Shown here: positions 24,016 through 37,185 of the stretch, in pieces
Layout of the letters: each line of letters starts with the position of its first letter
Numbering within the stretch: the first letter of the stretch is position 1
DNA from: Thioalkalivibrio sp. ALJ16
GTDB taxonomy: Bacteria; Pseudomonadota; Gammaproteobacteria; Ectothiorhodospirales; Ectothiorhodospiraceae
Direction of reading: 5' to 3'
Assembly: GCF_000377345.1 (NCBI RefSeq)
Contig: NZ_KB898052.1
Coordinates: 1 to 60,798 of the forward strand
Length of the DNA: 60,798 nt
The notes under the pieces: model-generated
Databases searched by the model: none
What the model saw: only the letters and a program-made list of their open reading frames with translations
What the model was told of the DNA's origin: nothing
Position numbers and translations under genes: made by a program

Positions 24016-24411
24016 TCAGAGAGCGGAGATCTGGGCCCGAATCTGGTCGTCCAGGTTCTGGACCCAGTTGTTGTAGTTGGGGTGGATCTGCCCGTCCGCG
24101 TAATTCAGGTTGCTGCTGTCCTTGTAGCGGATGCTGTACTGCCCTGCGGCGTACGGGATCTCCACCACCGCCACGTGCTCGCGCAGATTGAGGCGCCCCT
24201 CGATCAGACCCGGTTCGGTCTCTTCCATGCGCCAGCCCAGCGCGACGCCCGCGGTGCGGATGGCGCGTTCCATCTGTTCCGCGCTGGGCTGATCGCCATC
24301 GACATTCCGGACCGTGGTATCGCTGATGTCATGCACCGGGACCGTGCCACGGCAGCCGGCCAGCGCGATCAGTGCGGTGAAGAGGATGATCAGCAACGTC
24401 CTGGTATTCAT
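24016..24411 (-). CDS. Small lipoprotein of unknown function
   Basis: The ATG at 24411 (MNTRTLLIILFTAL) gives 131 residues with a lipobox LAGC at about residue 21. The mature part has a short linker, then a compact domain: MERAIRTAGVALGWRMEETEPGLIEGRLNLREHVAVVEIPY, then YSIRYKDSSNLNY and HPNYNNWVQNLDDQI. This A-L-G-W..G.I.G.L..R.H.A.V pattern occurs in uncharacterised proteobacterial lipoproteins. An in-frame ATG at 24432 is less likely. It lies 89 bases downstream of the polyketide operon on the same strand; whether it is read from that operon is unknown. Confidence 0.75.
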   Translation of the reverse strand: MNTRTLLIILFTALIALAGCRGTVPVHDISDTTVRNVDGDQPSAEQMERAIRTAGVALGWRMEETEPGLIEGRLNLREHVAVVEIPYAAGQYSIRYKDSSNLNYADGQIHPNYNNWVQNLDDQIRAQISAL

Positions 24412-24500
24412 GGTGTTTTCTCCCTTTTGCATGCGCCGCGAGTGTAGCCCCGCGGGTTCGCCAATTCCAGGATCGCCTGCCTGGTTCTGGCGGACTCCTG

Positions 24501-25223
24501 CTAGCGCGGGATCACGCCCAGCGAACGCACGAGTCCCAGCGGCCGCATGCCGCGGCGCAGCAGGTGGCCGGCCACCATGGCAATGATGCGCAGGGTGTCC
24601 GCGGTGGGGCGGTAGTGACTGGGGCGGTGGTTCTCCGGATAGATGCAGCGGACCGGCACCACCCGGACCGGAAAGCCCAGGCGTTCGGCGGCAATCAGGA
24701 CCTCGCTTTCAAACACGAAGCTGCGTCCCCGGTGGTGGGGCAGGTCGAGCTGCCGTAGCAGCGCTGCCGGATACAGCCGGAACCCGGACTGGGAGTCCTG
24801 CAGCGGCTGCCCCGAGGCCCAGGCGATCCAGAAATCCGCCATGCGGTTGCCGAACAGCCGCAGCGGCGGGGTGTGTTCGCGCCCCTTGAGTCGGGCACCG
24901 AGGATCAGGCGATCCGGGGTTTCGCGCCAGGCGGCTAGCAGGGCCGGGATCTCCGTGGTGTCGTGCTGGCCATCGGCGTCCAGGGTCACCACGGCGCTGG
25001 CGCCACTGGTCAGGGCGTGCTGCATACCGGCCCACAGCGCGGCGGCCTTGCCCTGGTTGCAGCCCTGGCGCAGGACTTCGGCCTGCCGCTTGGCGAGGCT
25101 TGCGGTGGCGTCGTCGGATCCGTCGTCGATCACGATCACCCGATCCACCCGGGCCCCGGCGATGACGGCCTCGATGGTGGCGGCCTCGTTATGGGCCGGG
25201 ATCAGGGCAACAATCTCGGACAT
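24501..25223 (-). CDS. Family 2 glycosyltransferase of the aryl polyene operon
   Basis: The 240-residue protein is a GT2 (GT-A fold) enzyme. It shows ALIPAHNEAATIEAVI at the start, VIDDGSDDATA, and LDADGQHD, the DxD motif that binds nucleotide-sugar and metal. A DSQSGFRLYP segment is typical of dolichyl-phosphate-mannose-like synthases. No membrane anchor is evident. It is the last gene of the twelve-gene operon, seven bases after the ketoreductase gene. Aryl polyene clusters often have such an enzyme, presumably to glycosylate the lipid anchor or head group; the actual donor and acceptor are unknown. The ATG at 25223 is preferred over 25274. Confidence 0.88.
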   Translation of the reverse strand: MSEIVALIPAHNEAATIEAVIAGARVDRVIVIDDGSDDATASLAKRQAEVLRQGCNQGKAAALWAGMQHALTSGASAVVTLDADGQHDTTEIPALLAAWRETPDRLILGARLKGREHTPPLRLFGNRMADFWIAWASGQPLQDSQSGFRLYPAALLRQLDLPHHRGRSFVFESEVLIAAERLGFPVRVVPVRCIYPENHRPSHYRPTADTLRIIAMVAGHLLRRGMRPLGLVRSLGVIPR

Positions 25224-25230
25224 GGCAGGG

Positions 25231-25953
25231 TCAGGCCAGGGCGCCGTTGACGCCGATGACCTGCGCCGAGACATAGCTCGACGCGGCGCTGGCGAGGAAG
25301 CCCACCACGCTGGCGACTTCCTCCGGCTGCCCGGCGCGCCGCATCGGCACCATGGAGCGGATGGCCTCGGTGTCGAAACTGGAGGCGCTCATCGGACTCT
25401 CGATGATGCCCGGGGCCACGGCATTGGCAGTGATGCCGCGCGAGGCGACTTCCTGGGCGAGCGAACGGATGGCCCCGTGCAGTCCGGACTTGGCCGCCGC
25501 GTAATTGGACTGGCCGCGGTTGCCGAGCTGACCGGCTACCGATGTGATGGCGATGACGCGGCCCCAGCGGGTGGTGATCATCGGCAGCAGCAGGGGCTGG
25601 GTTACGTTGTAGAAGCCGTTGAGTCCGACCTCGATCGGGTGGGCCCACTGCCCCGGGTTCATGCCGGCCAGCGGGGCATCGTCGTGTACGCCCGCGTTGT
25701 GTACCAGAATCTGCACGGGCTGCTCGGCGGCAAGCGGCTCCAGGGCCTCTCGGCAGGCACTGCCATCGGTGATGTCGAATACGACGACCCGGGCCCTGCC
25801 GCCCGCGTCCCGGATCGTCGTGGCGACGGCTTCGGCGGTGTCGCGGTTGCGGTGGGCGTGCAGGATCACCTCGTGACCGGCGGCGGCCAGGGTGTGGGCG
25901 ATGGCGGTGCCGATAGCGCCACTGGCACCGGTTATCAGGGCGCGCGGGTTCAT
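25231..25953 (-). CDS. 3-oxoacyl-ACP reductase (FabG-like ketoreductase, ApeQ-type)
   Basis: The 240-residue short-chain dehydrogenase reduces the beta-keto group of each chain extension. Near the N-terminus ALITGASGAIGTAI is the TGxxxGxG nucleotide-binding motif. HNAGVHDDAPL carries the NAG motif, and SNYAAAKSGL has the catalytic YxxxK, preceded by a Ser in ITSVAGQLG. The C-terminal GVNGALA resembles the FabG end. The ATG at 25953 overlaps the stop of the upstream dehydratase by four bases. An open reading frame continues upstream but only as a shadow of that gene. Confidence 0.93.
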   Translation of the reverse strand: MNPRALITGASGAIGTAIAHTLAAAGHEVILHAHRNRDTAEAVATTIRDAGGRARVVVFDITDGSACREALEPLAAEQPVQILVHNAGVHDDAPLAGMNPGQWAHPIEVGLNGFYNVTQPLLLPMITTRWGRVIAITSVAGQLGNRGQSNYAAAKSGLHGAIRSLAQEVASRGITANAVAPGIIESPMSASSFDTEAIRSMVPMRRAGQPEEVASVVGFLASAASSYVSAQVIGVNGALA

Positions 25954-26411
25954 GGGGCGGGTTCCTCGTCGGCGGGTTGCAGGATCACGGTTGCACGGGC
26001 ACTGAGCACCGCCCGCCCGCCGGCGGTGATCTCCAGCAGGTAGATGGAACTGCCGGCATCCGACAGCAGGCGTTCGGCGTGTATGTCCAGGGGGTGTTCG
26101 AGCCCATCCAGTGGGGCGGGCTGTACCTGCAGGTCCCGCACGGCCGCCAGGTAGCCGGCGCGGGCAGGCCCGGAAGCGGCCAGCAGGGCCCCGTGCACCG
26201 CCATGCCCTGGGCGCCGTATTCCAGGGCGGCCAGGGCCGGCAGCCCGTCCTCGCTGCGCAGCGGGTTGTGCGGGTCGCGGTGGCTGCTGGCACGACAGTG
26301 GATGCGGCTGTCGGACCAGGCCTCCACCGTGTCCAGCAGGCACATCGCGCCGGCGTGCGGCAGCCGCTGGCAGATGGCGTCGTGATTGAGGGTGTCGGGC
26401 TGGAGCGACAT
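25950..26411 (-). CDS. Hot-dog-fold 3-hydroxyacyl-ACP dehydratase (ApeP-type)
   Basis: The 153-residue protein resembles the ApeP dehydratase family. Near the N-terminus, RLPHAGAMCLLDTVEAW is the motif seen in these FabZ-like proteins, with a His and a conserved Leu-Leu-Asp. The central LAALEYGAQGMAVHGALL is the hot-dog central helix with the second acidic residue. The rest forms beta strands. It probably removes water after ketoreduction and so creates the conjugated double bonds. The gene overlaps the ketoreductase gene by four bases and follows the chain-length factor gene after 30 bases. Confidence 0.88.
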   Translation of the reverse strand: MSLQPDTLNHDAICQRLPHAGAMCLLDTVEAWSDSRIHCRASSHRDPHNPLRSEDGLPALAALEYGAQGMAVHGALLAASGPARAGYLAAVRDLQVQPAPLDGLEHPLDIHAERLLSDAGSSIYLLEITAGGRAVLSARATVILQPADEEPAP

Positions 26412-26441
26412 ACGCGGGATCTTCCTGATCCGGGCGGATGG

Positions 26442-27221
26442 TCAGGGCTCGATCCGGATACCCAGAGAGCGGCCCAATGGTGCCTTTAGCCTAACATGTC
26501 CGCCGTGGCCCCGGACCAGCTGTTCCAGCAGGGGCAGCGCGCGCGCGGCCGGGTTGCTGTCGCGCAGGGTCTCGAGGTCATCGCTCAGGCAGCGGTCCTC
26601 CGGGGCGCCCTGTGCGAAATCCAGCGTCAGGCGCCATGGGGCTCCGGAGGCCGGCCCCAGCCGCAGCGCGACCGCGAACGGATGGGTGATGGGCCGCACC
26701 CGGATGAAGGTATCCATCGACGGCACGTCGTAACAGGCCAGCAGGACCTCGCCGCCCTCGGCCAGCTGCAGTGTCGCGGCCTCCAGCAGGCCAGTGGCAA
26801 AGCTTGCGTTGTATCCCGAGAGGGCCGTCGCCGGGGCCGGGTTACGGGTCGCAATCGACCAGTTGCCGGCAGGGGCGTTGTGCACCGAATTGTGAAACTG
26901 CACCGGCGACACGACCGGGTCGGGCTGGGTCAGGGCGTCACAGATCCGGTCGATGATGTCCATGTCGCCGGAGGACGAGGCAAATACGCTGCGCAGCTGG
27001 CTGCGATCTGCGTCCGCGGTCGCCTCCTCCGCGACCTTCAGCGCCAGCCGGATGGTGGCGGTGGTACGGCGTCGTTCGTTGGCGGGGAGCAGACCGGGCG
27101 GCGGGGCGCGTACCGCGTCCGGGGTGAGGACGGCATCGCCCGCGAGCACGGCACGGGCACTGGCGAAGTCTTCCAGCCCCGGGCCCAGCAGACCCACGGC
27201 ATACAGGCCGATCGGGTTCAT
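26442..27221 (-). CDS. Ketosynthase-like chain-length factor (ApeC-type, no active-site Cys)
   Basis: The 259-residue protein corresponds to a short beta-ketoacyl-synthase N-terminal-like family found in aryl polyene clusters. FHNSVHNAPAGNWSIA near residue 110 marks the family, and there is no Cys in the thiolase-type nucleophile position. FASSSGDMDIID precedes it. Such proteins pair with a true ketosynthase and set polyene length. Its ATG at 27221 overlaps the ketosynthase stop by four bases, which would help a 1:1 KS-CLF ratio. It is about two-thirds the length of the ketosynthase, normal for this family. Confidence 0.87.
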   Translation of the reverse strand: MNPIGLYAVGLLGPGLEDFASARAVLAGDAVLTPDAVRAPPPGLLPANERRRTTATIRLALKVAEEATADADRSQLRSVFASSSGDMDIIDRICDALTQPDPVVSPVQFHNSVHNAPAGNWSIATRNPAPATALSGYNASFATGLLEAATLQLAEGGEVLLACYDVPSMDTFIRVRPITHPFAVALRLGPASGAPWRLTLDFAQGAPEDRCLSDDLETLRDSNPAARALPLLEQLVRGHGGHVRLKAPLGRSLGIRIEP

Positions 27222-28405
27222 GCGGTGGTCTCCAGGAGCAGGCTGCAGTTGTTGCCGCCGAAACCGAAGGCATTGACCAGCACGCGGGTCACCGGGCGTT
27301 CTTCGGCCTCGGTGCGGGCGTCCAGCCCGAGTTCCGGGTCCGGTGTGCGCAGGCCGGCCGTCGGGGGCACGAACTGGCCGTCCAGGCTGGCCAGGGCCTG
27401 CGCGACCCCGACGGCCCCGGCGGCACCCAGGGTATGGCCGGTCAGGCCCTTGCTGCCGGCGACCCGGCAGTTCGGTCCCAGGCCGGCGTTCAGGGCGCGG
27501 GCCTCGGCACGGTCATTGGCCGGCGTGGCGGTCGCGTGCATCAGCACATAATCGACATCTTCAGCACGGCAGCCGGCCCGTGCCAGCGCCTGGTTCAGGG
27601 CGGCGGCGGCCCCGCGGCCCTCCGGGTGCGGCGCGGACATGTGATGGGCATCGCTGGATTCGCCGTGACCGATCAGGCGCGGGCCATGGCGGCTGCTGCC
27701 TGCCCGTTCCAGCAGAAAGTAGCCCGCGGCCTCGCCGATGGAGATCCCCGCACGGTCGCGGTCCAGCGGTGTGCAGGGCCGAGCGGCGACCAGCTGCAGG
27801 GCGTTGAAACCATACAGGGTCATGCTGCACAGGCTGTCGACGCCGCCCACCACGGCGGCATCGCAGAGCCCCGCCGCGATGAAGCGCTGGGCGTCGGCAA
27901 ATACCTTGGCGCTGGACGAACAGGCGGTGGACACGACCATGGCCGGGCCGTTCAGACCGAGGCGGGTGGCCACGAAATCCGCCAGCGAGAACATGTTCTG
28001 GGTGTGCTGGTAGTCGTAGTCCGGCGGCAGGGCACCGGTCTGCGGGTCGCGTTGGTGGTAGGCGGCCTCGGTGGCCGCGATACCGGAGGTGCTGGTCCCG
28101 AGCAGGACCGCCACGCGGTCGGGCCCGTGACGGGCGGCTGCCGCCGCCACGGCCTCGGCGAATCCATCCTGGCGCAGCCCCAGTTCGGCGAGCTGGTTGT
28201 TGCGACAGAGAAACGGTGCCAGTGCCCCTTCCAGGGTGATCGCCTCCACGCCGGGTACGCGACCGATATGGGTGTCCAGGTGGATCGCGGGCAGGTCGCA
28301 GGGCCGCAGCCCGCTCGCGGATCGCCGCAGCGCCTCGGCATTGGCGGCGCGGCCGGTGCCGGCGGCGCTGGTCAGGGTGTGGGCGGTGATAACCAGGGGA
28401 TCCAT
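27218..28405 (-). CDS. Beta-ketoacyl-ACP synthase (ApeO-type ketosynthase)
   Basis: This 395-residue thiolase-fold ketosynthase performs the malonyl-ACP condensation. The nucleophile is the Cys in VSTACSSSAKVF near residue 160. The two catalytic His are in MHATATPAND and SKGLTGHTLGAAG, and the C-terminal GFGGNN loop is standard for KAS II-like enzymes. The ATG at 28405 (MDPLVITAHT) gives the usual N-terminus. Its stop overlaps the chain-length factor start. It is the only intact ketosynthase in the operon; larger aryl polyene clusters have two or three. Confidence 0.95.
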   Translation of the reverse strand: MDPLVITAHTLTSAAGTGRAANAEALRRSASGLRPCDLPAIHLDTHIGRVPGVEAITLEGALAPFLCRNNQLAELGLRQDGFAEAVAAAAARHGPDRVAVLLGTSTSGIAATEAAYHQRDPQTGALPPDYDYQHTQNMFSLADFVATRLGLNGPAMVVSTACSSSAKVFADAQRFIAAGLCDAAVVGGVDSLCSMTLYGFNALQLVAARPCTPLDRDRAGISIGEAAGYFLLERAGSSRHGPRLIGHGESSDAHHMSAPHPEGRGAAAALNQALARAGCRAEDVDYVLMHATATPANDRAEARALNAGLGPNCRVAGSKGLTGHTLGAAGAVGVAQALASLDGQFVPPTAGLRTPDPELGLDARTEAEERPVTRVLVNAFGFGGNNCSLLLETTA

Positions 28406-28475
28406 GAAGCGGCTTTCTGCGGGTTGTGGCCGGAGGCAGCACCGGCTGGATGGGCCGAACGGACAGCCGGTCGGA

Positions 28476-30821
28476 TCAGTCGCGTGGCGGGCCCTCGGGG
28501 GCCAGCAGGGCCGCTGCGAGGAAGGAAAATACCACGCCCAGCACCACAGTGAGACCCATGGCCTGCAGCACCGGCAGGCTGGAGAGCGCCAGCAGCCCGA
28601 ATACGACCAGTGTGGACAGGGCGCAGACGCTGACCGAGCGCAGGTTGCGCAGGCGCGCGGTGGCATCCGCGAGCGGACGACTGAAAAACACCGCGTAGTC
28701 CAGGCACAGGCCGGTAATCAGCAGCAGCGCGATCAGGTGGAACAGCGACAGCGACACCCCCAGCAGGATCAGGGTTGCGACCGTCAGCACCAGGCCGGTG
28801 CCCACCGCGGCCAGGATGCGCAGGCTGCGTCCCGGGGCTCGTGTCACCAGCAGCAGGAGCAGAGCTACGGCCAGGATGCCCAGGGCCAGACGCTGCAGGG
28901 CCTCGTTGCGAAAGTCGATGACCAGGTCCGCGGAGGCGCGGAAAAAGTCGACGTACTGCACGCGATCCCCGTCCAGCGCAAGGGTGTCGGCCCAGCGCGC
29001 CAGGGCGTCCGGATCCTGCACCCCGCGCAGGCGCACCCAGGCGATCCAGCCGGGCCCGTCGGCGCGCGGCTGCAGCAGGGGCGCCAGGGCGTTGCGCAGC
29101 AGGCCCTCGGGCAGGGTTTCCGGGGCCAGCGGGGTCTGCTGACGGGCGCGCTCCACGTCGGCCACGAACGGTTCGAAGGCGCCCGCGCGAAAGCCCAGCC
29201 CCGCTGCGGCTGCATCGACCCGCTCGCGCAGGGTGGCGGCGGTCGGCAGCGCGTCCTGGCGGCTGCGCTGCAGGGCCTGGCTGGGCAGGATCTGCGCGGC
29301 GTGGTGGTAACCGTCGAGGATCCTGGCGGCCCGCAGGGCCTGCAGTTCCGGTGTCAGCGCCTCGCTGGCCTGCAGCGCCTGCTCCGGCGTGTCGCCGTGG
29401 ACCAGCAGGGCATGGCGCACGTCGGCGAGTCCGAGCGCACTGCGCAGCTCCTGGTCAAGCGCGGCCTGATCCTCCGGCACCGGGTGCAGCGCGGACAGGC
29501 GATCCTCCCAGGGGAAGGGGTCTGCGGTCGCGATCACGCCGAGGGCGCCCAGCGCCAGCGCGGCAAGGCCCCAGCGGGCGGTCGGCGCTGGCGCCGCGAG
29601 GGCGGCGGGCAGGGGCAGGCGCAGCGGGGGCAGGCCCTCGCGGCGCAGGCGTGCCGGCAGCAGCGGAGGCAGAACCCAGCGTGTGACCAGGGCCGCCACC
29701 GCGACCCCGGTGAGCACGAACAGGCCCAGCTGGGCCATGCCGGAAAAACCGGTCATGGCCATCAGCGCGTAGACCAGTATCGTGCTGCCCGCTCCGAGTG
29801 CGATCGCGGGCCACAGCTCGCGGGCCACCTGATGGATATCGGCGCTGCGCGGACGCTGGGCATGGCTGAACAGGTGCAGGGGATAGTCCAGCGCGATCCC
29901 GAGCACGGTGATGCCGAAGGCCAGCGCGATCCCGTGCAGATGACCGAACACCAGGGTCACGACCGCCGCGGCCACCAGGATGCCGCTGGCCAGCGGTACC
30001 GCGGCCAGCCACACCGGGTGCGGATGGCGAAACACCAGGGCCAGCAGCAGGGCCAGGGCCAGGCTGGCCGCGCTGGTGATCCAGACCACCTCGGTGCGGA
30101 TGGTGGCGCGGGATTCGACGGCGATCTGCGCCGGCCCCGCGATGCGCAGTTGCAGGTCGGGCGCGGCCATACGTGTGAACGCCGCGCGTGTGCGCGCGAT
30201 CAGTTCGGCCTGGGCATCCAGATCCATGCCCTCGGCGTGGCTGTGCAGGACCAGCAGCGCCCGGCCGGCGTCGCGATCGACCCAGACGCCGCCGGGGCCG
30301 GTCGCGGCGCGCCCGCCACCGCTGCCGAGCTGTTCCAGCACAACCGCTGTCTGGCCGGTGGGGTCGCGCGGGATCAGCTCGCGCGGCAGTGCCGGAACGC
30401 TACTGGAGAGATCGTCGCGCCGGGCCTCCAGCTCCTTGCCCAGGCGTTCCGGCTCGAAGTGCCCGGCGTCGATCTCGGGGCTCAGCAGGTAGCGGTATTC
30501 GATCAGGAGTTCCAGGCTTGGCGCGTCCGGGTCCGGACGGCCGTTGTGGATGCCCGCGACGCCGGGTGCGGCCTCCAGTGCGGCCACCAGGGCATCGCTG
30601 GCATCGGCGCGGGCTCTGGCATCACCCCCCTCGATGGCCAGCAGCAGGGTACGCCCGGCCGGGCCGGCACCCGCATCCAGCGGGATGCCGCTGGCGCTGA
30701 CGGGGTCCGGGGCAAAGCCCTGGAGGTCGGTGACCACTTCGCCGCGCAGGCCGAGGGTCAGGGCCGCCAGCAGCAGCGCGACCAGCCACAGCGCCAGAGC
30801 GGCCCGGGAGCGCGGCGGCAT
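28476..30821 (-). CDS. MMPL/RND-family exporter of the aryl polyene operon
   Basis: The 781-residue membrane protein has two homologous halves, each with one transmembrane helix, a large periplasmic loop and five further helices. Each half carries the conserved transmembrane acidic pair: GIALDYPLHLF near residue 330 and GLCLDYAVFF near residue 735. These Asp-Tyr sites are thought to couple proton flow to transport. MMPL-type exporters in aryl polyene and xanthomonadin clusters are believed to move the lipid-linked pigment out of the inner membrane. The start lies four bases from the LolA-like stop, and 70 bases follow before the ketosynthase gene. Confidence 0.92.
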   Translation of the reverse strand: MPPRSRAALALWLVALLLAALTLGLRGEVVTDLQGFAPDPVSASGIPLDAGAGPAGRTLLLAIEGGDARARADASDALVAALEAAPGVAGIHNGRPDPDAPSLELLIEYRYLLSPEIDAGHFEPERLGKELEARRDDLSSSVPALPRELIPRDPTGQTAVVLEQLGSGGGRAATGPGGVWVDRDAGRALLVLHSHAEGMDLDAQAELIARTRAAFTRMAAPDLQLRIAGPAQIAVESRATIRTEVVWITSAASLALALLLALVFRHPHPVWLAAVPLASGILVAAAVVTLVFGHLHGIALAFGITVLGIALDYPLHLFSHAQRPRSADIHQVARELWPAIALGAGSTILVYALMAMTGFSGMAQLGLFVLTGVAVAALVTRWVLPPLLPARLRREGLPPLRLPLPAALAAPAPTARWGLAALALGALGVIATADPFPWEDRLSALHPVPEDQAALDQELRSALGLADVRHALLVHGDTPEQALQASEALTPELQALRAARILDGYHHAAQILPSQALQRSRQDALPTAATLRERVDAAAAGLGFRAGAFEPFVADVERARQQTPLAPETLPEGLLRNALAPLLQPRADGPGWIAWVRLRGVQDPDALARWADTLALDGDRVQYVDFFRASADLVIDFRNEALQRLALGILAVALLLLLVTRAPGRSLRILAAVGTGLVLTVATLILLGVSLSLFHLIALLLITGLCLDYAVFFSRPLADATARLRNLRSVSVCALSTLVVFGLLALSSLPVLQAMGLTVVLGVVFSFLAAALLAPEGPPRD

Positions 30822-30824
30822 GCT

Positions 30825-31475
30825 TCAGTCCGCGGCCTGCGGTGGCTCGAACCGCATCCGGCTGTGGTGGCCGCCGGCCTCGATGGTGATCAGTTCGCGG
30901 AGTTCGCCGTCGGCCCCGCTCAGGGTCAGCTCGGGGACCATGCGCCGCAGCGCGCGGTCGCGCGGCGTCAGTTCCAGGGTCCAGTCGGCGGCATCTCCCG
31001 TGCGTTCGATCTCGAAATCCGTCTCCAGCGTCTCGCGGTCACCGTTCAGCAGGGACCGAAACAGGCCGGTCAGGGTGGCCAGAGCCGGCTGTTCGTCGAG
31101 ATCGATCTCGCGGCTGGAGCCGCGACGCTCGAGGGTGAGGGTGTTGCCCTCGATACGCACGGTCTCGCCGCGCGGACCCTCCACCGCTCGGGTCAGTCGG
31201 TCGGGGGGCTCGAAGGCCAGTGTGCCCGTGCGGGTCTCGGCGAACTCCAGCATTGGGTCGTCGCGGCGTTCCTCGAACACCAGGGTCGCGGGTTCGTCCC
31301 GGGCGAGCGTATCCAGGATCGTCCCGAGACGGTCATCCGCTGGGGCGGCAATGGGCAGGCACATGCCTGTGGCGAGGGCCAGGGCGGCCGCGACACGACG
31401 AAGGTCAGGCCTCGCCTTCACTGCACGCCGCGCCGGGTCGCGGGAAAGCCGGGGTATCCATGCGAGCCTGTTCAT
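30825..31475 (-). CDS. LolA-like periplasmic carrier protein of the aryl polyene operon
   Basis: The 216-residue protein has a signal peptide (AAALALATGMCLPIAAPADD) and a mature part resembling LolA-type half-barrels: TLVFEERRDDPML, GTLAFEPPDRLTR, then FRSLLNGDRE and a C-terminal PELTLSGADGELREL. Clusters of this type usually contain such a protein, thought to carry the acylated pigment across the periplasm to the outer membrane. It overlaps the acyltransferase gene by four bases and precedes the exporter gene by three bases. The extended basic N-terminus before the signal core suggests the true start could be internal. Confidence 0.82.
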   Translation of the reverse strand: MNRLAWIPRLSRDPARRAVKARPDLRRVAAALALATGMCLPIAAPADDRLGTILDTLARDEPATLVFEERRDDPMLEFAETRTGTLAFEPPDRLTRAVEGPRGETVRIEGNTLTLERRGSSREIDLDEQPALATLTGLFRSLLNGDRETLETDFEIERTGDAADWTLELTPRDRALRRMVPELTLSGADGELRELITIEAGGHHSRMRFEPPQAAD

Positions 31476-32389
31476 TGATCGGTTTCCCCCCGGCGGGCGC
31501 CTTCATCCCAGAAATCATAGAAATTGAACCAGTTGTAGGGGGCCTCGCGCACCCGGGACTCCAGGCGGTCGGCGTAGCGCTGTACCCATTGTGCGAGGGC
31601 CTCGTCGCGCTGGCCGCGCGGGGCCTCGATGGTCTCGGCGAAGGGTTCGAAGACGATATCGTAGCGGTTGCCGCCACGGTAGAGCCCGAAGCAGAGGATC
31701 ACCGGGACCTTGAGCACGGCGGCGAGCAGCAGGGGGCCCTGCGGGAACAGGGCGGTGTCGCCGAGGAAGCGGCAGGCGACCATCTTGTCGCTCTCCGCGA
31801 CGCGGTCGCCCAGGGTGGCCACCAGTTCGCCCCGGTCCAGACATTCGCGGGCCTGGATCAGGGTCTCGGTGCGTCCCAGCGGGATGACCGCGGCGGCGAC
31901 GTCCGGATTGAGGCTCTCCAGCAGGCGCGTGATGCCCTCGTTGTGGTTCGGGTACATCAGCACCCGGACCGGAAAGTCATGCTTGCCGACGGCCAGTGCC
32001 CGCAGGGCCTCGAAGCTGCCCAGGTGGGCGCCGAGCAGGATGGCGCCGCGGCCACTCTCGACATGGCGCAGGAAGACCTCGCGGTGATGCACCCGCACGT
32101 CCAGGCGGTCGTCGCGGCCGGCCAGAAAGAAGACTCGATCCAGGGTGACCGCGGCGAAACAGTGCAGATGCCGGGCGAGGTCGCCGAGCCCGGGTTCGCG
32201 GCCGAGGACGCGGCGCAGGTAGCGGCGGCTGTGGTGGCGCGAGCGGGGAGCGAACAGCAGGAAATAGGCGGTGATCGGGTACAGCAGCGCGCGGCTGGCC
32301 CGGCGCCCGAGGTTCAACGCCACCCACAGGATGATGCGCAGGGCCAGCGGGGATCCCCGCTCCTGTTGCTGGAACCAGGCCCGACTCAT
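31472..32389 (-). CDS. LpxL/HtrB-like lysophospholipid acyltransferase
   Basis: The 305-residue protein belongs to the LPLAT family. LLGAHLGSFEALRA contains the HX4E catalytic motif near residue 120. An N-terminal hydrophobic segment (residues 20-50, LALRIILWVALNL, ALLYPITAYFLLFA) anchors it to the inner membrane. The end of the protein, RVREAPYNWFNFYDFW, is typical of the LpxL-like members in aryl polyene clusters. It may join the polyene acyl chain or a fatty acid to the glycerol-based lipid anchor. Four-base overlaps link it to the LolA-like gene and to the dehydratase gene. Confidence 0.9.
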   Translation of the reverse strand: MSRAWFQQQERGSPLALRIILWVALNLGRRASRALLYPITAYFLLFAPRSRHHSRRYLRRVLGREPGLGDLARHLHCFAAVTLDRVFFLAGRDDRLDVRVHHREVFLRHVESGRGAILLGAHLGSFEALRALAVGKHDFPVRVLMYPNHNEGITRLLESLNPDVAAAVIPLGRTETLIQARECLDRGELVATLGDRVAESDKMVACRFLGDTALFPQGPLLLAAVLKVPVILCFGLYRGGNRYDIVFEPFAETIEAPRGQRDEALAQWVQRYADRLESRVREAPYNWFNFYDFWDEGARRGETDQ

Positions 32390-32712
32390 GCCGCGGGTGT
32401 GGCGGTGACGAGCTGGCCCGCGCAGAGGGTGATCTCGGGCGCGGCATCCACGGTGATGACCCGAAAGGCCCGGCGGCCGCCGCGCCCGGGCGGGTCGATC
32501 TCGACGCGGAAATCGGTCTCCGGTGCCAGCGGCGCGAGGAACTTGACCTGCGGCAGCGCGTTGATCGAGCCCAGGCCGTGTGCCTGTGCGACGGCCGCGA
32601 CCTGGTCCAGTACAACCACGCCCGGGACCACCGGGTGGCCGGGGAAGTGACCGGGCAGCGCCGGGTGGTCGGCGCCGATGCGGCGGGTGCCGGACTGGAC
32701 CGGGGTGACCAT
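32386..32712 (-). CDS. FabZ/FabA-like hot-dog dehydratase (ApeI-type)
   Basis: The 108-residue protein has the hallmark HPALPGHFPGHPVVPGVVVLDQV of hot-dog dehydratases: a His before Phe-Pro and the PGV loop. It is shorter than FabZ (about 150) but has the size typical of ApeI proteins. It probably works with the ApeP-like dehydratase, giving two dehydratases in one operon. The ATG at 32712 begins MVTPVQSG; the frame stays open further upstream but that part shadows the ligase gene. The stop overlaps the acyltransferase start by four bases. Confidence 0.88.
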   Translation of the reverse strand: MVTPVQSGTRRIGADHPALPGHFPGHPVVPGVVVLDQVAAVAQAHGLGSINALPQVKFLAPLAPETDFRVEIDPPGRGGRRAFRVITVDAAPEITLCAGQLVTATPAA

Positions 32713-32725
32713 CAGGGGGCTGCGC

Positions 32726-34084
32726 TCAGGCGCATTCGCCGTGCCTGGCGAGCAGATCCAGCAGGACCTGGCGCGGCAGTTTGCCGGTGGCGGAGCGTGG
32801 CAGGTGATCGACACGGACCAGGGGGCGCGGCAGGAACAGCGGGTCCATGCACTGGGCCAGCTCGGCCTGGATCTCGGCCGAGCTGCGCCGGGGAGCGACC
32901 ACCAGGGCCGCCAGGCGCGCGATGCCTGCGCCATCCGCAGCCTGCGCGGGCGGAATGAACACGCCGTCCAGCACGCCGGGGATGGCGTTCAGGCGTCGAT
33001 TCAGGTCGGCGAGGGATGCGCGCTTGCCGGCGATATTCAGCTGATCGGCCAGGCGGCCCTCCATGCGGAAGTGGTGCGGGTCGCGGGCCTCGATATGGTC
33101 CGGAAGCGGGACGGGCTCGGGATGCTGGGGACCCTGCGCCCGAACCCGGCCCGCATCGGTGCCGAACACCTGCACACCGGGGTAGGCGGTCCAGTCGGTC
33201 TCCGCCGTCGTGCGCCGGGTGGCGATGGCCCCGGCCTCGGTGCAGCCGTAGATCTCGTCCAGGCGGCATCCAAACACCCGCTCGGCCTGTGCGGCGGTCT
33301 CCGGGGGCAGCGGCGCGGTGGCACAGAGGATGCGCTGCGGCCGCGGCCAGTCCAGGCCCGCGCGCAGGCAGGCACCCAGATGGAAGGGGGTGGTGACCAG
33401 CACGGCCGGGGCATGCGCAGACAGCGCCGCACGAACGTCCGCCGGATAGAACGGACGCTCCGCTAGGACGCTGGCATGCCCCAGCAGCGCGTACAGCAGG
33501 GTCGATTCCAGCCCGTACATGTGCTGTGGCGGGACGGTCCCGACCAGTACCGGGCCCGGGCCTTGCTGCAGCTCGAAACACGCCACGGCCTGGCGGGTGA
33601 CGGCGTCGAGCGCGCCCCAGGAGCGGGCATGGGCCGTGGGCGCACCCGTGCTGCCGGAGGAGAAGGCCAGGACCGCGGTCTGGTCCGCCGGGATCTCGGG
33701 GATCGGACTCGCGGCCACGCCGGCCTCGCCGCTGGCGGAGACCCGCAGGATCGGCACATCGATCTCGGCGTCCGGCCCGTCCACCAGGGCGTGGGCATCC
33801 GGATGCTGGCTGGCGATCTCGGCCAGGGTGGTGCGCCCGCGGTTCGGCGGGAGCAGGCTGGTCTGGCCGCGCAGCAGCAGGGCCGCAAAGGCAACCGCAA
33901 AGTGGTAGCGGTCCTGACACAGGTTGAACGCGGCGCGCGCCGCAGGCAGGCGTGCGGCCAGGGCCTGAACGTCGGCAAGGAAGGCGGCACGCGTAATGGG
34001 TCGCTCCCCGATGTACGCCAGCGGCGTCGGGGCGCTGGTCATCAGGGGGCGGGTGGCCTTTTCCGCGGAGGATGCGGCCGTCAC
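32726..34084 (-). CDS. AMP-dependent acyl/aryl-CoA (or -ACP) ligase, ApeH-type
   Basis: The 452-residue adenylate-forming enzyme probably activates the aryl starter, such as 4-hydroxybenzoate or a cinnamate, and loads it onto the carrier protein. The P-loop-like AFSSGSTGAPTAHARSW near residue 145 lacks the usual Lys after Gly-x-Pro. IYGCTEAGAIATR is the ATP/aryl-binding motif, and SATGKLPR near the C-terminus has the catalytic Lys. DQLNIAGKRASL is the hinge. It overlaps the membrane protein gene by four bases and precedes the small dehydratase by 13 bases. No ammonia-lyase or chorismate lyase is in the window. Confidence 0.9.
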   Translation of the reverse strand: MTAASSAEKATRPLMTSAPTPLAYIGERPITRAAFLADVQALAARLPAARAAFNLCQDRYHFAVAFAALLLRGQTSLLPPNRGRTTLAEIASQHPDAHALVDGPDAEIDVPILRVSASGEAGVAASPIPEIPADQTAVLAFSSGSTGAPTAHARSWGALDAVTRQAVACFELQQGPGPVLVGTVPPQHMYGLESTLLYALLGHASVLAERPFYPADVRAALSAHAPAVLVTTPFHLGACLRAGLDWPRPQRILCATAPLPPETAAQAERVFGCRLDEIYGCTEAGAIATRRTTAETDWTAYPGVQVFGTDAGRVRAQGPQHPEPVPLPDHIEARDPHHFRMEGRLADQLNIAGKRASLADLNRRLNAIPGVLDGVFIPPAQAADGAGIARLAALVVAPRRSSAEIQAELAQCMDPLFLPRPLVRVDHLPRSATGKLPRQVLLDLLARHGECA

Positions 34085-34695
34085 GGGTGCCTCAGGATGC
34101 GCTGGTGATCCGCCCGCGCCAGCTCGATCAGGTAGGCGAAGAAGCCGTTACGGGGTTCGTTGCGCAGCAGCCAGCGGCGCAGCGGATACTCGAGCAGGAA
34201 CAGGGCGGCCAGCAGCAGGTAGTTGACGCCGTTGGCAAACAGGGCCCAGGCGCCGGCCGGGGCGAACAGCGCCAGGGCGACGGAGGCGAGCGCCATGGTG
34301 GCGCACAGCAGGGCCCAGGCGAGGGTCAGGCGACGCGTGTAGCGATGGACCGGCGCGGTGTCGGAGGCGCCCATGGCCAGGGCGTAGCGGGTGATCAGCG
34401 GGGTCGAACCGGGCCGCAGCGAGCGCGCGAACAGGTAGCTCAGCAGGCCCATGACCAGTACCGGCACGGTGTACAGCAGCCAGCTGCCGGCATCGAACGC
34501 CAGGAGCAGGGCAATGCCGGCGCCGAGGCCGGTCGCCAGCAGCACGCGGCCGGTGGCCGCCAGGACCCCCCAGCTGGCCACCAGGATCAGGGCGGCCAGC
34601 ATGCTCAGCGGCAGCAGGGGCCAGCCGTGGGTGACGCCGAGTACCACCGCAACCGGATAGCCCAGGGCCACGCTGGCGGCGAGGGGTGTGTTCAC
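34081..34695 (-). CDS. COG4648-like integral membrane protein of the aryl polyene operon
   Basis: The 204-residue protein has about six hydrophobic helices, beginning ASVALGYPVAVVLGVTHG and ending around NYLLLAALFLLEYPLRR. Near the C-terminus is an RNEPRNGFFAYL segment. Proteins of this kind (COG4648) occur in nearly all aryl polyene clusters, often beside the acyl carrier protein and ligase, and their biochemical role is not established. Both ends overlap neighbours by four bases (ATGA), so expression is locked to the carrier protein and ligase. Confidence 0.85.
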   Translation of the reverse strand: MNTPLAASVALGYPVAVVLGVTHGWPLLPLSMLAALILVASWGVLAATGRVLLATGLGAGIALLLAFDAGSWLLYTVPVLVMGLLSYLFARSLRPGSTPLITRYALAMGASDTAPVHRYTRRLTLAWALLCATMALASVALALFAPAGAWALFANGVNYLLLAALFLLEYPLRRWLLRNEPRNGFFAYLIELARADHQRILRHP

Positions 34696-34964
34696 GACGC
34701 GGCTCGGTTGGCCTCGATATGGGCGCTCAGCGCGCGCAGGGAGGCAAAGATCTGGCGATTGTTCTCGTCGTCCGAGCGGATCTGGACGCCATAGGCACGC
34801 GAGATCGCCAGGGCCAGCTCCAGGGCATCAATGGAGTCCAGGCCCAGGCCCTCACGGAACAGGGCGTCCTCGGGTTCGATGTCCTCGGGCGCGATGTCCT
34901 CCAGATTGAGGCTGTCGACGATCAGTCGGGCGACTTCCTGTTCGAACGCTGTTTGCGATGCCAC
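34692..34964 (-). CDS. Acyl carrier protein of the aryl polyene operon
   Basis: The 90-residue protein carries GLGLDSIDALELALAI, where the Ser of DSI is the 4'-phosphopantetheine site. It starts at a GTG (VASQTAFEQEVARLIV), not an ATG. A run of nine G lies six to fourteen bases before it and serves as the Shine-Dalgarno region. As first gene of the operon it carries the growing chain between the ligase, ketosynthase and reductive enzymes. Aryl polyene clusters usually have two carrier proteins; only one is present here. The stop overlaps the membrane protein gene by four bases. Confidence 0.93.
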   Translation of the reverse strand: MASQTAFEQEVARLIVDSLNLEDIAPEDIEPEDALFREGLGLDSIDALELALAISRAYGVQIRSDDENNRQIFASLRALSAHIEANRAAS

Positions 34965-34969
34965 GTGTT

Positions 34970-34978
34970 CCCCCCCCC
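34970..34978 (-). promoter_or_regulatory. Nine-G tract forming the ribosome-binding site of the carrier protein gene
   Basis: The plus strand has nine consecutive C at 34970-34978, which are nine G on the coding strand. They end five bases before the GTG at 34964. No other Shine-Dalgarno sequence is available. Homopolymer slippage here would change the spacing or strength of the site and so the translation of the first gene in a translationally coupled operon. Confidence 0.6.
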
Positions 34979-35144
34979 GGGATGATGGTGTGGTGCGGTT
35001 ACGTGATCGCCGTCGAACTTCCGGTTCACGCGGCGGTAACCCTGCTGGGGGCCGATGATACTCACACGCGGGGGGCCGTGGTACCCTCGCGACCAGTTCG
35101 GGTCGCCGTTCTGGCGGGCTGGATGGGAATTCTGGAGGCGGAGT
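34979..35144. promoter_or_regulatory. Divergent control region between the polyketide operon and the flavoprotein gene
   Basis: This 166-base region must contain promoters for both directions. A GAAC-N5-GTTC palindrome is centred at 35021 within a larger GTGA...TCAC arrangement and could be an operator. The minus strand near 35058 reads TATCAT, a weak -10 candidate. No regulator gene lies beside it. Confidence 0.35.
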
Positions 35145-36503
35145 TTGGGACAACCCGAAGAGAAGATGGCAACGGACGGTCGTTGTCAGGTGCTGGTGAT
35201 CGGGGGAGGTCCTGCCGGTTCCACCGTTGCCTCGCGTCTGGCGCAGAAGGGCCGCGATGTGGTGCTGCTGGAAAAGGCCCGCCATCCTCGCTTCCATATC
35301 GGCGAATCCCTGCTGCCGATGAACATGCCGCTGTTCGAGGAACTGGGGGTCGCCGAGGCGATCGCGACCATCGGCATCCCCAAGCACGGGGCCGAGTTCA
35401 CCATACCCGAGGCGCCCGATGCGCCGCGCACCTACTACTTCGAGCGTGCCCTGAACGACGACACCCCGGCCTCGGCCTACGAGGTGCGGCGTTCGGAGTT
35501 CGATCACCTGCTGCTGGAAAACAGTACGCGTCTGGGCGTGCGGGTGCTGGAGGAGGTGACCGTCTCCGACGTGGCCCTGGCCGACCCGGCGCAGGGGGGC
35601 ACTCAGCTGGTCACCGCACGTGATGCGGGTGGCAATACGCTGGAGTTCGAGGCCGACTTCGTGATCGATGCCTCCGGGCGCGATACCTTCCTGGCGCGGC
35701 GCCTGGACCTGAAGATGCGCAACCCCGAGCACAACAGCGCGGCCATCTTCGGACACTTCGACCATGTGCCGCGGCGCCCGGGCCGCGACGCCGGCAACAT
35801 CAGCATCTACTGGTTCCAGCATGGCTGGATCTGGATGATCCCGCTGCGTGACGGTGCGATGAGCGTGGGCGCGGTGTGCTTTCCGGAATACCTGAAGACG
35901 CGCCGGACCAAGCCGGAGGCGTTCCTGTGGGAGACCCTGAAGCTGTGCCCCCCGGCGTTCGAACGCATGCAGGGAGCGGAACTGGCCGGCCCGGTGAATG
36001 CCACCGGCAACTTCTCCTACCGCTCGCGTCAGGCCCACGGGCCGGGCTACCTGCTGGTGGGCGATGCCTTTACCTTCGTTGACCCGGTATTCTCCAGCGG
36101 GGTGTATATCGCGATGTCGGGCGCCTTCCGCGCCGCCGATGCGGTGGACCGCTGCCTGGAGCGCCCGGCGCGTGCCGGACGCTACCTGCGCGCCTTCGAG
36201 CGTGACGTGCGCCGCGGCGTGCGCCGCTTCTCCTGGCTGATCTACCGCTTCAACAGTCCGGTGATGCGCAAGCTGTTCATGGGGCCGCGCAACACGCTGG
36301 GCATGGAGCAGGCGGTGATCTCCCTGCTGGCCGGCGATGTCTACCGCAATACCCGCGTGCAGTGGTCGCTGCGCGCCTTCAAGGCTGTGTACTACACCCA
36401 GATGGCGCTGAACCTGCCGCGGGCCCTGCACTTCTGGGCGCGGCGCCGGCGCAACGCGCGGCTGCATTTCACCGGTGGCACCACGCCCGAAGACGAGGCC
36501 TGA
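35145..36503 (+). CDS. Flavin-dependent halogenase-like FAD oxidoreductase
   Basis: The protein has an N-terminal FAD motif (VLVIGGGPAGSTVASRLA), FHIGESLLPMNMP, and GWIWMIPLRDG near residue 220, which fits the WxWxIP signature of flavin-dependent halogenases. A second FAD motif, GPGYLLVGDAFTFVDPVFSSG, follows. Halogenases of this type act on phenols or carrier-bound aryls and need an FADH2 supplier. Xanthomonadin clusters have a similar gene, and their pigments are brominated. Some family members are not halogenases, so this needs proof. The TTG at 35145 has GGAGG six bases away; the ATG at 35166 has a poor site. Confidence 0.85.
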   Translation: MGQPEEKMATDGRCQVLVIGGGPAGSTVASRLAQKGRDVVLLEKARHPRFHIGESLLPMNMPLFEELGVAEAIATIGIPKHGAEFTIPEAPDAPRTYYFERALNDDTPASAYEVRRSEFDHLLLENSTRLGVRVLEEVTVSDVALADPAQGGTQLVTARDAGGNTLEFEADFVIDASGRDTFLARRLDLKMRNPEHNSAAIFGHFDHVPRRPGRDAGNISIYWFQHGWIWMIPLRDGAMSVGAVCFPEYLKTRRTKPEAFLWETLKLCPPAFERMQGAELAGPVNATGNFSYRSRQAHGPGYLLVGDAFTFVDPVFSSGVYIAMSGAFRAADAVDRCLERPARAGRYLRAFERDVRRGVRRFSWLIYRFNSPVMRKLFMGPRNTLGMEQAVISLLAGDVYRNTRVQWSLRAFKAVYYTQMALNLPRALHFWARRRRNARLHFTGGTTPEDEA

Positions 36504-36513
36504 GCAGGCTCGC

Positions 36514-37185
36514 GTGGGCGCGGCACGGGTCGGACTGGGACGCATCGGCGCGGATGGCCTGGCGACCTTCGCGCTGTCGAACCTGATCATCCTGGCGACC
36601 GGCGGCCTCTCCTGGCTGCTGCTGTGGACCCATGCCCTGCGCTGGTCGCGACGGCTTCGCTGTCCTGGTGGGGGCCGGTGCATCCTTGTACTGGGGCAGC
36701 AACTGGAGGCCGGGGCGCCAGGGGCGGGGTACCGCCTGCGCCTGTTGCGCGCGGTGCGGCTGGCGCGGCGCAACCCCGATGCCCGGATCCTCGTACTGGG
36801 CGGGCAGACGTCCCCGCAGGGCCCGACCGAGGCCGCCGCGGGCGCCGCGTTTCTGCGCCGCTATGGCATCGCTGCCGAGCGTATCCAGACGGAGGATGCC
36901 TCCCGGCACACCCTGGAGAACCTGCGCAACGCCCGTGACCTGCTGGCGCTGGAGCCGCATGACGACGAGCCGCTGGTGCTGATTACCAGCCGCTTCCATC
37001 TCGCCCGGTCGACGGCGATGGCGCGTGGCATGGGATTGCGCGTCTGCCCCTGTCCGGCCGAGTTGGACTCGCGTGTGTCCGCGGCCCGGCTGGCACGGGA
37101 GGCCTGGATGCTGCACTGGTATCACGTGGGTCGCGGCTTCGCCCGCCTGATCCGCCACCGCGGCATGCTCGAACGCATCACCTGA
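36514..37185 (+). CDS. DUF218 (YdcF/SanA-like) protein
   Basis: From the GTG at 36514, preceded by AGG, the protein has 223 residues. An N-terminal hydrophobic segment (FALSNLIILATGGLSWLLLW) anchors it. The DUF218 domain follows: CILVLGQQLEAGAPGAGYRLRLLRAVRLAR, ILVLGGQTS, EAAAGAAFLRRYGI and a TLENLRNARDL stretch with LVLITSRFHLARS. DUF218 proteins bind S-adenosylmethionine-like or cell-wall-related ligands, but the function is uncertain. An ATG at 36475 would overlap the flavoprotein gene by 29 bases. It is probably co-transcribed with that gene, though a role in pigment synthesis is not indicated. Confidence 0.8.
   Translation: MGAARVGLGRIGADGLATFALSNLIILATGGLSWLLLWTHALRWSRRLRCPGGGRCILVLGQQLEAGAPGAGYRLRLLRAVRLARRNPDARILVLGGQTSPQGPTEAAAGAAFLRRYGIAAERIQTEDASRHTLENLRNARDLLALEPHDDEPLVLITSRFHLARSTAMARGMGLRVCPCPAELDSRVSAARLAREAWMLHWYHVGRGFARLIRHRGMLERIT

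What the first reader, a model, noticed from the sequence alone, without database searches (positions are those of the whole stretch)
24501..34964. Compact twelve-gene aryl polyene operon
Carrier protein, COG4648 membrane protein, ligase, two dehydratases, acyltransferase, LolA-like protein, MMPL exporter, ketosynthase, chain-length factor, ketoreductase and glycosyltransferase lie in one minus-strand operon. Six junctions overlap by four bases and most others are under 35 bases apart. Compared with described aryl polyene clusters it has one carrier protein and one intact ketosynthase instead of two or more, and no thioesterase or starter-making lyase. It may be a minimal version that borrows parts from primary metabolism. 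In a salt- or alkali-adapted sulfur bacterium the pigment could protect the outer membrane.
Basis: partly seen in the sequence, partly recalled or inferred. Interest (0 to 1): 0.75.

Follow-up and report, generated by a model that had tools for sequence, protein, structure and literature searches.

The report
Soda-lake bacterium's yellow pigment genes
These genes very probably make the yellow, partly chlorinated membrane pigment known chemically from soda-lake sulfur bacteria but not yet assigned to genes, and strains that naturally lack one gene offer a ready test.

Summary
In detail: twelve packed minus-strand aryl polyene genes at 24501-34964 with six 4-base overlaps. 'Minimal version borrowing from primary metabolism' is mostly wrong: one ketosynthase with a short chain-length factor and one carrier protein is the known xanthomonadin-type layout. 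A UbiE-like methyltransferase and a second chorismatase at one unlinked locus co-occur with it: of 30 genus genomes, 15 have the cluster; 14 and 12 of these have the two genes, against 0 and 0 of 15 without it. The nearest of nine relatives compared lacks operon, halogenase, methyltransferase and second chorismatase but keeps the lipoprotein. The genus is Thioalkalivibrio, whose yellow pigments natronochrome and chloronatronochrome are chemically described; a 2011 genome paper says the genes remain to be identified. Best reading: this is the natronochrome cluster and the halogenase makes the chlorinated form. K90mix, a reported natronochrome producer, has the operon without the halogenase, so the prediction is testable with existing strains. 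The link to the compound is inferred; I could not read the structure paper.

The parts
24016..24411 (-). small lipoprotein (131 aa, no Pfam/NCBIfam hit), 13th gene, downstream of the glycosyltransferase
   Evidence: Homologs in 27 of 68 aryl polyene loci outside the genus, 22 of the 27 beside GT2; in 16 of 47 family genomes: the 15 with CLF plus G025. Start ATG 24411; searches used 24414, one residue more
24501..25223 (-). family 2 glycosyltransferase (dolichyl-phosphate hexosyltransferase-like)
   Evidence: PF00535 72.6 bits; a dolichyl-phosphate mannose synthase-like ORF15 in the Lysobacter cluster
25231..25953 (-). ketoreductase (FabG/ApeQ-like)
   Evidence: NF004200 331 bits, cut-off 273; flexirubin FlxB model 238 bits, below its cut-off 340
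25950..26411 (-). dehydratase, ApeP-like
   Evidence: PF22817 E 0.0039, below cut-off; best PDB hit 6qsr_B, E 1.9e-5 (that 6qsr is ApeI-ApeP is recalled)
26442..27221 (-). chain-length factor, ApeC-like half ketosynthase
   Evidence: PF13723 102.5 bits; the only two PDB hits are 6qsp_B and 7f28_A, KS partner chains
27218..28405 (-). ketosynthase, ApeO-like, C162/H290/H324 present
   Evidence: NF006618 488 bits, cut-off 407; best PDB hits 6qsp_A (ApeO) and 7f28_B; residues
28476..30821 (-). MMPL/RND exporter (ApeM-like)
   Evidence: PF03176 44.5 bits, cut-off 20.5
30825..31475 (-). LolA-like periplasmic carrier (ApeL-like)
   Evidence: PF19574 85.6 bits, cut-off 23; flexirubin LolA2 model 35 bits, below cut-off 125
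31472..32389 (-). LpxL-like acyltransferase
   Evidence: PF03279 47.2 bits, cut-off 22.3
32386..32712 (-). dehydratase, FabZ/ApeI-like
   Evidence: PF07977 28.9 bits, cut-off 23; ApeI-like below cut-off; PDB hits FabZ first, 6qsr_A E 0.0015
32726..34084 (-). aryl-activating ligase (ApeH-like)
   Evidence: PF00501 82.8 bits, cut-off 29.9; best NCBIfam 4-coumarate-CoA ligase model, below cut-off
34081..34695 (-). membrane protein at the ApeG (COG4648) position
   Evidence: no family hit; hydrophobic segments; position and homologs
34692..34964 (-). acyl carrier protein (ApeE-like)
   Evidence: NF006617 135.8 bits, cut-off 70
34965..35144 (.). shared intergenic region of the divergent ACP and halogenase genes: block A GCCGATGATAC (35051-35061) and block B CCGTGGTACCCTCGCGACC (35076-35094)
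   Evidence: Block A in 15 of 15 clusters (13 exact, 2 with one mismatch); block B in 8 of 8 halogenase-plus (6 exact, 2 with one mismatch) and 0 of 7 halogenase-minus at up to 3 mismatches. No sigma-70 consensus
35145..36503 (+). flavin-dependent halogenase, proposed aryl polyene chlorinase
   Evidence: PF04820 95.4 bits, cut-off 21; CmlS best NCBIfam model, below its cut-off; PDB hits mostly halogenases; WxWxIP. TTG 35145 and GGAG at 35134 invariant in 8 of 8; searches used start 35166
36475..37185 (+). DUF218 (ElyC-like) protein, overlaps the halogenase stop
   Evidence: PF02698 90 bits, cut-off 27.6; in 14 of 14 other cluster loci of the genus, absent at the empty site of G025; homologs in 27 of 68 other aryl polyene loci

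Best explanation
This is a xanthomonadin-type aryl polyene gene cluster of a Thioalkalivibrio species, most likely the biosynthetic locus of the yellow membrane pigments natronochrome and chloronatronochrome. Proposed route: a second chorismatase and a UbiE-like methyltransferase, encoded together on another contig, supply a hydroxybenzoate (3-HBA or 4-HBA, undecided) and methylate the ring or its hydroxyl. The ligase loads the hydroxybenzoate on the single ACP. The KS/CLF pair extends it with malonyl units while the KR and two dehydratases leave a conjugated polyene. The LpxL-like acyltransferase and GT2 attach it to a lipid or sugar anchor, and the MMPL/LolA/lipoprotein set carries it to the outer membrane. 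The divergent flavin-dependent halogenase chlorinates the phenolic ring, giving the chloro form. Shown here: gene identities, conserved order, halogenase motif, co-occurrence, the empty site. Inferred: every reaction, the product's identity, chlorine rather than bromine, location and protective role.
For: KS and CLF find the solved aryl polyene pair 6qsp as best hits, the ApeP-like protein 6qsr_B. K90mix is reported to make 'high concentrations' of natronochrome with genes unidentified (PMC3368412, passages); G016 is K90mix by exact size (2,744,800 + 240,256 = 2,985,056) and carries all twelve genes without the halogenase. Six named strains, Tv. versutus AL 2 among them, carry operon plus halogenase (93-96%), and one MAG too (84%, no GT2 beside it). 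Halogenase (one 36% hit apart) in 8 of 15 CLF-plus and 0 of 32 CLF-minus family genomes. Unlinked methyltransferase (E up to 1e-40) in 14 of 15 against 0 of 32 (Fisher p 4e-11 in the family, 2e-7 in the genus). Second chorismatase clade in 12 of 15 against 0 of 15 in the genus (p 1e-5). P values ignore kinship. Homologs of halogenase, methyltransferase and DUF218 lie inside 27, 18 and 27 of 68 aryl polyene loci outside the genus, against 0-1 for seven neighbouring-gene controls. No carotenoid desaturase over cut-off in 4 of 4 genomes searched.
Against: No chemistry was done. I could not read the 2004 structure paper, so that natronochrome is an aryl polyene and where its chlorine sits rest on titles, recall and the phrase 'high degree of unsaturation'. 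The studied strain ALJ 15 was re-identified as Tv. nitratis (PMC5345834, passages), whose genome is not among my named hits, so no chemically proven chloronatronochrome producer was shown to hold the halogenase. Three of 15 cluster genomes lack the second chorismatase (one is a 66% complete MAG). The chorismatases found in 11 of 68 outside aryl polyene loci score higher against the second one in 10 of 11, but so do the single chorismatases of the family's other genera, and on the tree the outside ones do not group with it with support, so this is not specific. FAD hydroxylase model QhpG also matches the halogenase (162 bits against 200 for CmlS, both below cut-off). In the described relatives the halide is bromide (xanthomonadin) or there is none (Lysobacter).
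Confidence: 0.75

Rival explanations
1. One reading: a pared-down aryl polyene operon that borrows its starter enzyme, second carrier protein and second ketosynthase from primary metabolism.
For: Inside 24501-34964 there is one ACP, one KS, no thioesterase and no lyase. Malonyl-ACP and the phosphopantetheinyl transferase must come from elsewhere (general knowledge). In G012 and G021, which lack the second chorismatase, the general one may serve both needs.
Against: The layout matches described xanthomonadin-type clusters (PMC3691225, PMC8253772, passages). A second chorismatase and a methyltransferase co-occur with the cluster and are absent from 15 of 15 cluster-free genomes of the genus.
Confidence: 0.12
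2. The divergent FAD enzyme is a hydroxylase or other oxidoreductase of the polyene head, not a halogenase.
For: QhpG and reductase models also match; the 25 of 74 NCBIfam matches shown are all below cut-off.
Against: Trp_halogenase PF04820 is over its cut-off. Of the nine best PDB hits six are named halogenase, one is CmlS, one ChlB4 (a halogenase by recall), one a flavoprotein of unstated role. WxWxIP is in 34 of 34 homologous frames. The genus is known for a chlorinated pigment (PMC3368412 reference list).
Confidence: 0.15
3. Natronochrome is made by some other pathway and this operon makes a different, perhaps silent, aryl polyene.
For: No expression or chemical data were available; the link to natronochrome is by genus, strain and halogenase.
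Against: One CLF and two PF00109 ketosynthases in the genome, and no carotenoid desaturase over cut-off in G000, K90mix, versutus or G025.
Confidence: 0.12
4. The polyene is further joined to a dialkylresorcinol, as in flexirubin or arcuflavin.
For: A related cluster in Azoarcus makes such a hybrid (PMC3949708, abstract and passages).
Against: No resorcinol-forming gene was recognised in 24016-37185. The rest of the genome was not searched for DarA/DarB.
Confidence: 0.05

Closest known systems
Xanthomonadin-type clusters: Lysobacter enzymogenes OH11 (PMC3691225), Azoarcus arcuflavin (PMC3949708), Xanthomonas
   Same: One KS with a short CLF-like partner, ACP, two dehydratases, KR, acyltransferase, LolA-like carrier, exporter, GT2 (Lysobacter); chorismatase starter enzyme and halogenase in Azoarcus, halogenase in Xanthomonas.
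   Different: Chorismatase and methyltransferase sit at a second locus; halogenase divergent from the operon; expected halide chloride, not bromide; DUF218 and lipoprotein genes attached. No sequence comparison with these reference clusters was run.
Aryl polyene APE-Ec / APE-Xd clusters (E. coli CFT073, Xenorhabdus doucetiae; PMC8253772, passages)
   Same: KS, CLF, KR, two dehydratases, ligase, ApeG position, LolA-like, RND exporter; similar local order ACP-G-ligase-DH.
   Different: 18 genes there; no second ACP, no ApeR, no ApeK thioesterase and no fused GT/AT here; halogenase present here.
CmlS/CndH/PltA-type flavin-dependent halogenases (that 3e1t is CndH is recalled)
   Same: FAD motif, WxWxIP, aligned lysine, FVDPxFSSG; profile scores 185-199 bits.
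   Different: Substrate and halide untested.
FkbO/Hyg5/XanB2 chorismatases
   Same: PF21168 over cut-off; catalytic Glu and Cys of 5ag3 kept (that 5ag3 is Hyg5 is recalled, its numbering fits PMC7170507).
   Different: Below the TIGR04444 cut-off; Ala in place of Gly173, so not the full 3-HBA-type signature.

Membership tests
Aryl polyene (type II PKS) cluster | ApeO-like KS with ApeC-like short CLF, adjacent | tested here: met
   overlap of 4 bases
Aryl polyene (type II PKS) cluster | ACP, aryl-activating ligase and KR | tested here: met
Aryl polyene (type II PKS) cluster | ApeI/ApeP dehydratase pair | tested here: inconclusive
   Two dehydratase-like genes in place, both below the ApeI/ApeP Pfam cut-offs; 6qsr_B E 1.9e-5, 6qsr_A E 0.0015 after FabZ
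Aryl polyene (type II PKS) cluster | LolA-like and MMPL/RND export genes with acyl/glycosyltransferases | tested here: met
Aryl polyene (type II PKS) cluster | Polyene carboxylate product in the outer membrane | not testable with these tools
   No chemistry
Xanthomonadin subtype | Single KS and single ACP in the cluster | tested here: met
Xanthomonadin subtype | Halogenase linked to the cluster (present in Xanthomonas, absent in Lysobacter) | tested here: met
   8 of 15 Thioalkalivibrio clusters
Xanthomonadin subtype | XanB2-type chorismatase supplying the starter | tested here: inconclusive
   Second chorismatase in 12 of 15 cluster genomes, unlinked; product cannot be told from alignment (PMC3949708)
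Xanthomonadin subtype | Brominated aryl octaene | not testable with these tools
   Chloride expected from the genus's known pigment
APE-Ec/Xd type | Second ketosynthase ApeR and second ACP in the cluster | tested here: not met
   Gene inventory 24016-37185; two PF00109 proteins in the genome. ACPs elsewhere were not counted
APE-Ec/Xd type | ApeK thioesterase in the cluster | tested here: not met
   None recognised in 24016-37185; genome not searched
Flexirubin type | Aromatic ammonia lyase and resorcinol genes in the cluster | tested here: not met
   None recognised in 24016-37185; genome not searched for them
Flavin-dependent halogenase | FAD site, catalytic lysine, WxWxIP | tested here: met
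   (these as family markers are recalled)
Flavin-dependent halogenase | Halogenating activity | not testable with these tools
   Needs assay

The most novel reading that the evidence does not exclude
The locus is the unassigned natronochrome/chloronatronochrome pathway: a two-locus aryl polyene system with its own chorismatase and methyltransferase apart from the operon, plus a dedicated chlorinase whose presence or absence among strains sets whether the pigment is chlorinated. It would be a genetically assigned chlorinated aryl polyene pathway, with the whole system lost together in a close relative.
Probability: 0.65. Interest if true: 0.65.

Novelty: new member of a known kind. Interest (0 to 1): 0.58.

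Why it matters
A membrane pigment of soda-lake sulfur oxidisers was described chemically in 2004 (seen only as a reference in PMC3368412 and PMC5345834) and suggested to guard against oxidative, UV and salt stress, but its genes were said in 2011 to be unidentified. In the held library 'natronochrome' occurs in 3 papers; no paper joins Thioalkalivibrio with 'aryl polyene' or 'halogenase', and the one that joins it with 'arylpolyene' does so in separate passages. The strain set gives a natural experiment on what chlorination, and the pigment itself, do at high salt and pH. The methyltransferase, lipoprotein and DUF218 genes are further candidate parts of aryl polyene systems in general.

Tried and rejected
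Rejected: 'minimal cluster' as novelty (see verdict). Rejected: a second full set elsewhere. Rejected: UbiC as starter source. Not decided: whether the second chorismatase gives 3-HBA or 4-HBA. Both chorismatases keep Gly240, Cys327 and the catalytic Glu of 5ag3 but have Ala at Gly173, and PMC3949708 says the product cannot be predicted from alignment. Weakened on checking: I had taken the chorismatases inside 11 of 68 outside loci as pointing to the second paralog; the tree (73 sequences) puts the second paralogs in one clade (12 genomes, support 0.999) and the general ones of the genus in another (0.997), but leaves the outside ones and those of the other genera unplaced between them. Promoter and terminator scans gave nothing above chance. 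The lipoprotein was first used as a flank control; it failed as one (27 of 68 loci), which showed that it belongs to aryl polyene clusters; the seven other controls gave 0, 0, 1, 0, 1, 0 and 0. The carotenoid-desaturase search matched only short N-terminal stretches, none over cut-off. An attempt to fetch the E. coli aryl polyene cluster as yardstick missed it and was dropped. No structure prediction was run. Dropped before counts: the 36% halogenase-like hit of G014 (no CLF). The strict pattern for the halogenase lysine matched 8 of 34 homologs because it was written too narrowly; I rely on the PDB alignments. Sampling: one search kept the best 80 of 229 loci; 68 of the 80 lie outside the 12 Thioalkalivibrio loci. 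Literature search found 100 papers with two of four terms, of which 20 were listed.
Full report
WHAT IS THERE. Twelve minus-strand genes at 24501-34964 are real and in the order given, with six 4-base overlaps and four of five other gaps under 35 bases. The unit is larger. Next to the carrier-protein gene and divergent from it lies a flavin-dependent halogenase. Its start is most likely TTG 35145: TTG and a GGAG seven bases before it are invariant in 8 of 8 orthologs. A DUF218 gene (36475-37185) overlaps its stop. At the other end, 89 bases past the glycosyltransferase, is a small lipoprotein gene (24016-24411).

WHOSE IT IS. The window is the whole of contig 16 of a 2.76 Mb, 99.9% complete genome. 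The CLF search over named genomes kept the best 80 of 229 loci: twelve Thioalkalivibrio loci at 66-85% identity, then a drop to 50% and below. G016 is Thioalkalivibrio sp. K90mix: its two contigs sum to 2,985,056 bases, the size in PMC3368412. The species of the window itself is not named.

IS IT A MINIMAL CLUSTER? Published xanthomonadin-type clusters already have one KS, one short CLF-like partner and one ACP (PMC3691225 passages and section 6; PMC8253772 passages). The KS and CLF here match the solved ApeO-ApeC pair 6qsp best. ApeO-ApeC alone made full-length polyene in vitro (PMC8358021 abstract and passages). So the small size is ordinary.

THE HALOGENASE. PF04820 is over its cut-off (95.4 against 21 bits). 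The best NCBIfam model is the chloramphenicol halogenase CmlS, below its strict cut-off. Of the nine best PDB hits six are named halogenase, one is CmlS, one ChlB4, one an uncharacterised flavoprotein. WxWxIP is in 34 of 34 homologous frames. Within 47 family genomes the gene occurs at 84-100% in 8, all with the CLF; one more genome has only a 36% hit and no CLF. In the 7 cluster genomes without it, ACP and DUF218 genes stand directly back to back. A 19-base block in the shared intergenic region is in 8 of 8 halogenase-plus and 0 of 7 halogenase-minus loci, while a second block is in all 15. With the ACP it is the best conserved protein of the cluster (94.5% mean identity over six strains; ACP 94.0%, the other eleven 73-87%). 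On a tree of five cluster proteins the halogenase-plus strains are not one clade, because a MAG (G032) falls outside the halogenase-minus thiocyanoxidans group; one gain and one loss, two losses, or two gains would explain this.

STARTER AND METHYLATION. There is no UbiC. Two FkbO/Hyg5/XanB2-family chorismatases lie elsewhere in the genome. Every good family genome has at least one (38 of 38). Within the genus the copy near mutM is general (25 of 30; the five without it are 66-80% complete), as expected for ubiquinone. The other copy, on contig 4 beside a UbiE-like methyltransferase (same gene order in 5 of 5 genomes looked at), forms a clade of its own (support 0.999) and is in 12 of 15 CLF-plus and 0 of 15 CLF-minus genomes of the genus (absent in G012, G021 and the 66% complete MAG G032). 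The 17 genomes of other genera have one chorismatase each, in neither clade, though scoring higher against the second copy. The methyltransferase, at E up to 1e-40, is in 14 of 15 CLF-plus genomes, missing only in that MAG, and in 0 of 32 CLF-minus. Fisher p values (methyltransferase 4e-11 in the family, 2e-7 in the genus; chorismatase 1e-5 in the genus) ignore shared ancestry. In the 68 aryl polyene loci outside the genus, homologs of the methyltransferase lie in 18, of a chorismatase in 11, of DUF218 in 27, of the halogenase in 27 (21 above 150 bits). Seven control proteins from the same neighbourhoods hit 0-1 of 68; the eighth, the lipoprotein, hit 27 and so proved to be a cluster part, beside GT2 in 22 of 27. 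The chorismatases in those loci cannot be assigned to the second paralog in particular. A remote chorismatase serving a cluster has a precedent (PMC7170507 passages).

EMPTY SITE. G025 is the nearest of nine relatives compared: 90.7% DNA identity over 14.4 kb around the general chorismatase (the others 77.5-85.3%) and 86% over the left flank (others up to 80%); by ValS alone G023 is nearer, 97.6% against 95.7%. In G025 ValS is followed after 200 bases by the lipoprotein gene, without operon, halogenase or DUF218 between. CLF, halogenase, second chorismatase and methyltransferase are found nowhere in its genome. The lipoprotein is otherwise found only in cluster genomes (16 of 47). This looks like joint loss of one trait; insertion into an older lipoprotein site is not excluded.

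THE PRODUCT. K90mix is said to make high concentrations of natronochrome, with genes to be identified (PMC3368412 passages). The 2004 paper that names natronochrome and chloronatronochrome was seen only as a reference; its structures were not read. Its strain ALJ 15 was later placed in Tv. nitratis (PMC5345834 passages), which my hits do not name. K90mix has the operon and no halogenase; Tv. versutus AL 2 and five other named strains have both. No carotenoid desaturase reached its cut-off in 4 of 4 genomes. The simplest account is that this operon makes natronochrome and the halogenase its chloro form. That is inference; it predicts which strains make which pigment.

STANDING. The kind of system is known. 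What is new is the assignment to an orphan pigment, the halogenase as the switch between its two forms, the split into two loci, and added candidate genes (lipoprotein, DUF218, methyltransferase, second chorismatase). 'Not in print' rests only in the held open library; earlier genome-mining tables may list these clusters as aryl polyene (recalled, not checked). Names given from recall: CndH for 3e1t, ApeI-ApeP for 6qsr, Hyg5 for 5ag3, ChlB4 as a halogenase, and the motif markers of halogenases.

Noticed in passing
24016-24411 (-): Lipoprotein without any Pfam or NCBIfam match, beside GT2 in 22 of the 27 outside aryl polyene loci that have it; possible unrecognised aryl polyene localisation factor.
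   Followed up: yes
36475-37185 (+): DUF218/ElyC-like gene attached to the cluster in 14 of 14 other genus loci, with homologs in 27 of 68 outside loci; may act on the lipid anchor.
   Followed up: partly
G000:C4:238593-240441 (outside the window): UbiE-like methyltransferase plus second chorismatase, beside pyrC; cluster-linked by co-occurrence.
   Followed up: yes
L195 (G025:C2:388000-400000): A close relative lacks the whole pigment unit but keeps the lipoprotein gene between ValS and a ZapG-like gene.
   Followed up: yes
L032 (G032:C282:1-18990): MAG cluster with halogenase but no GT2 or lipoprotein beside KR; its lipoprotein is on another contig.
   Followed up: partly
37358-40135 (-): ValS beside the cluster gives a different kinship from other genes (G023 nearest at 97.6%), perhaps recombination at this locus.
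   Followed up: no
23197-23820 (+): ZapG-like cell-division protein gene flanks the cluster in the window and in 12 of 14 other genus loci.
   Followed up: no
L065, L066, L070, L074, L088, L090 (about 14.3-15.8 kb): Thiodiazotropha and related symbiont aryl polyene loci carry a distant FAD enzyme (about 31% to the halogenase, WMWIIP) near DUF218; function unclear.
   Followed up: no
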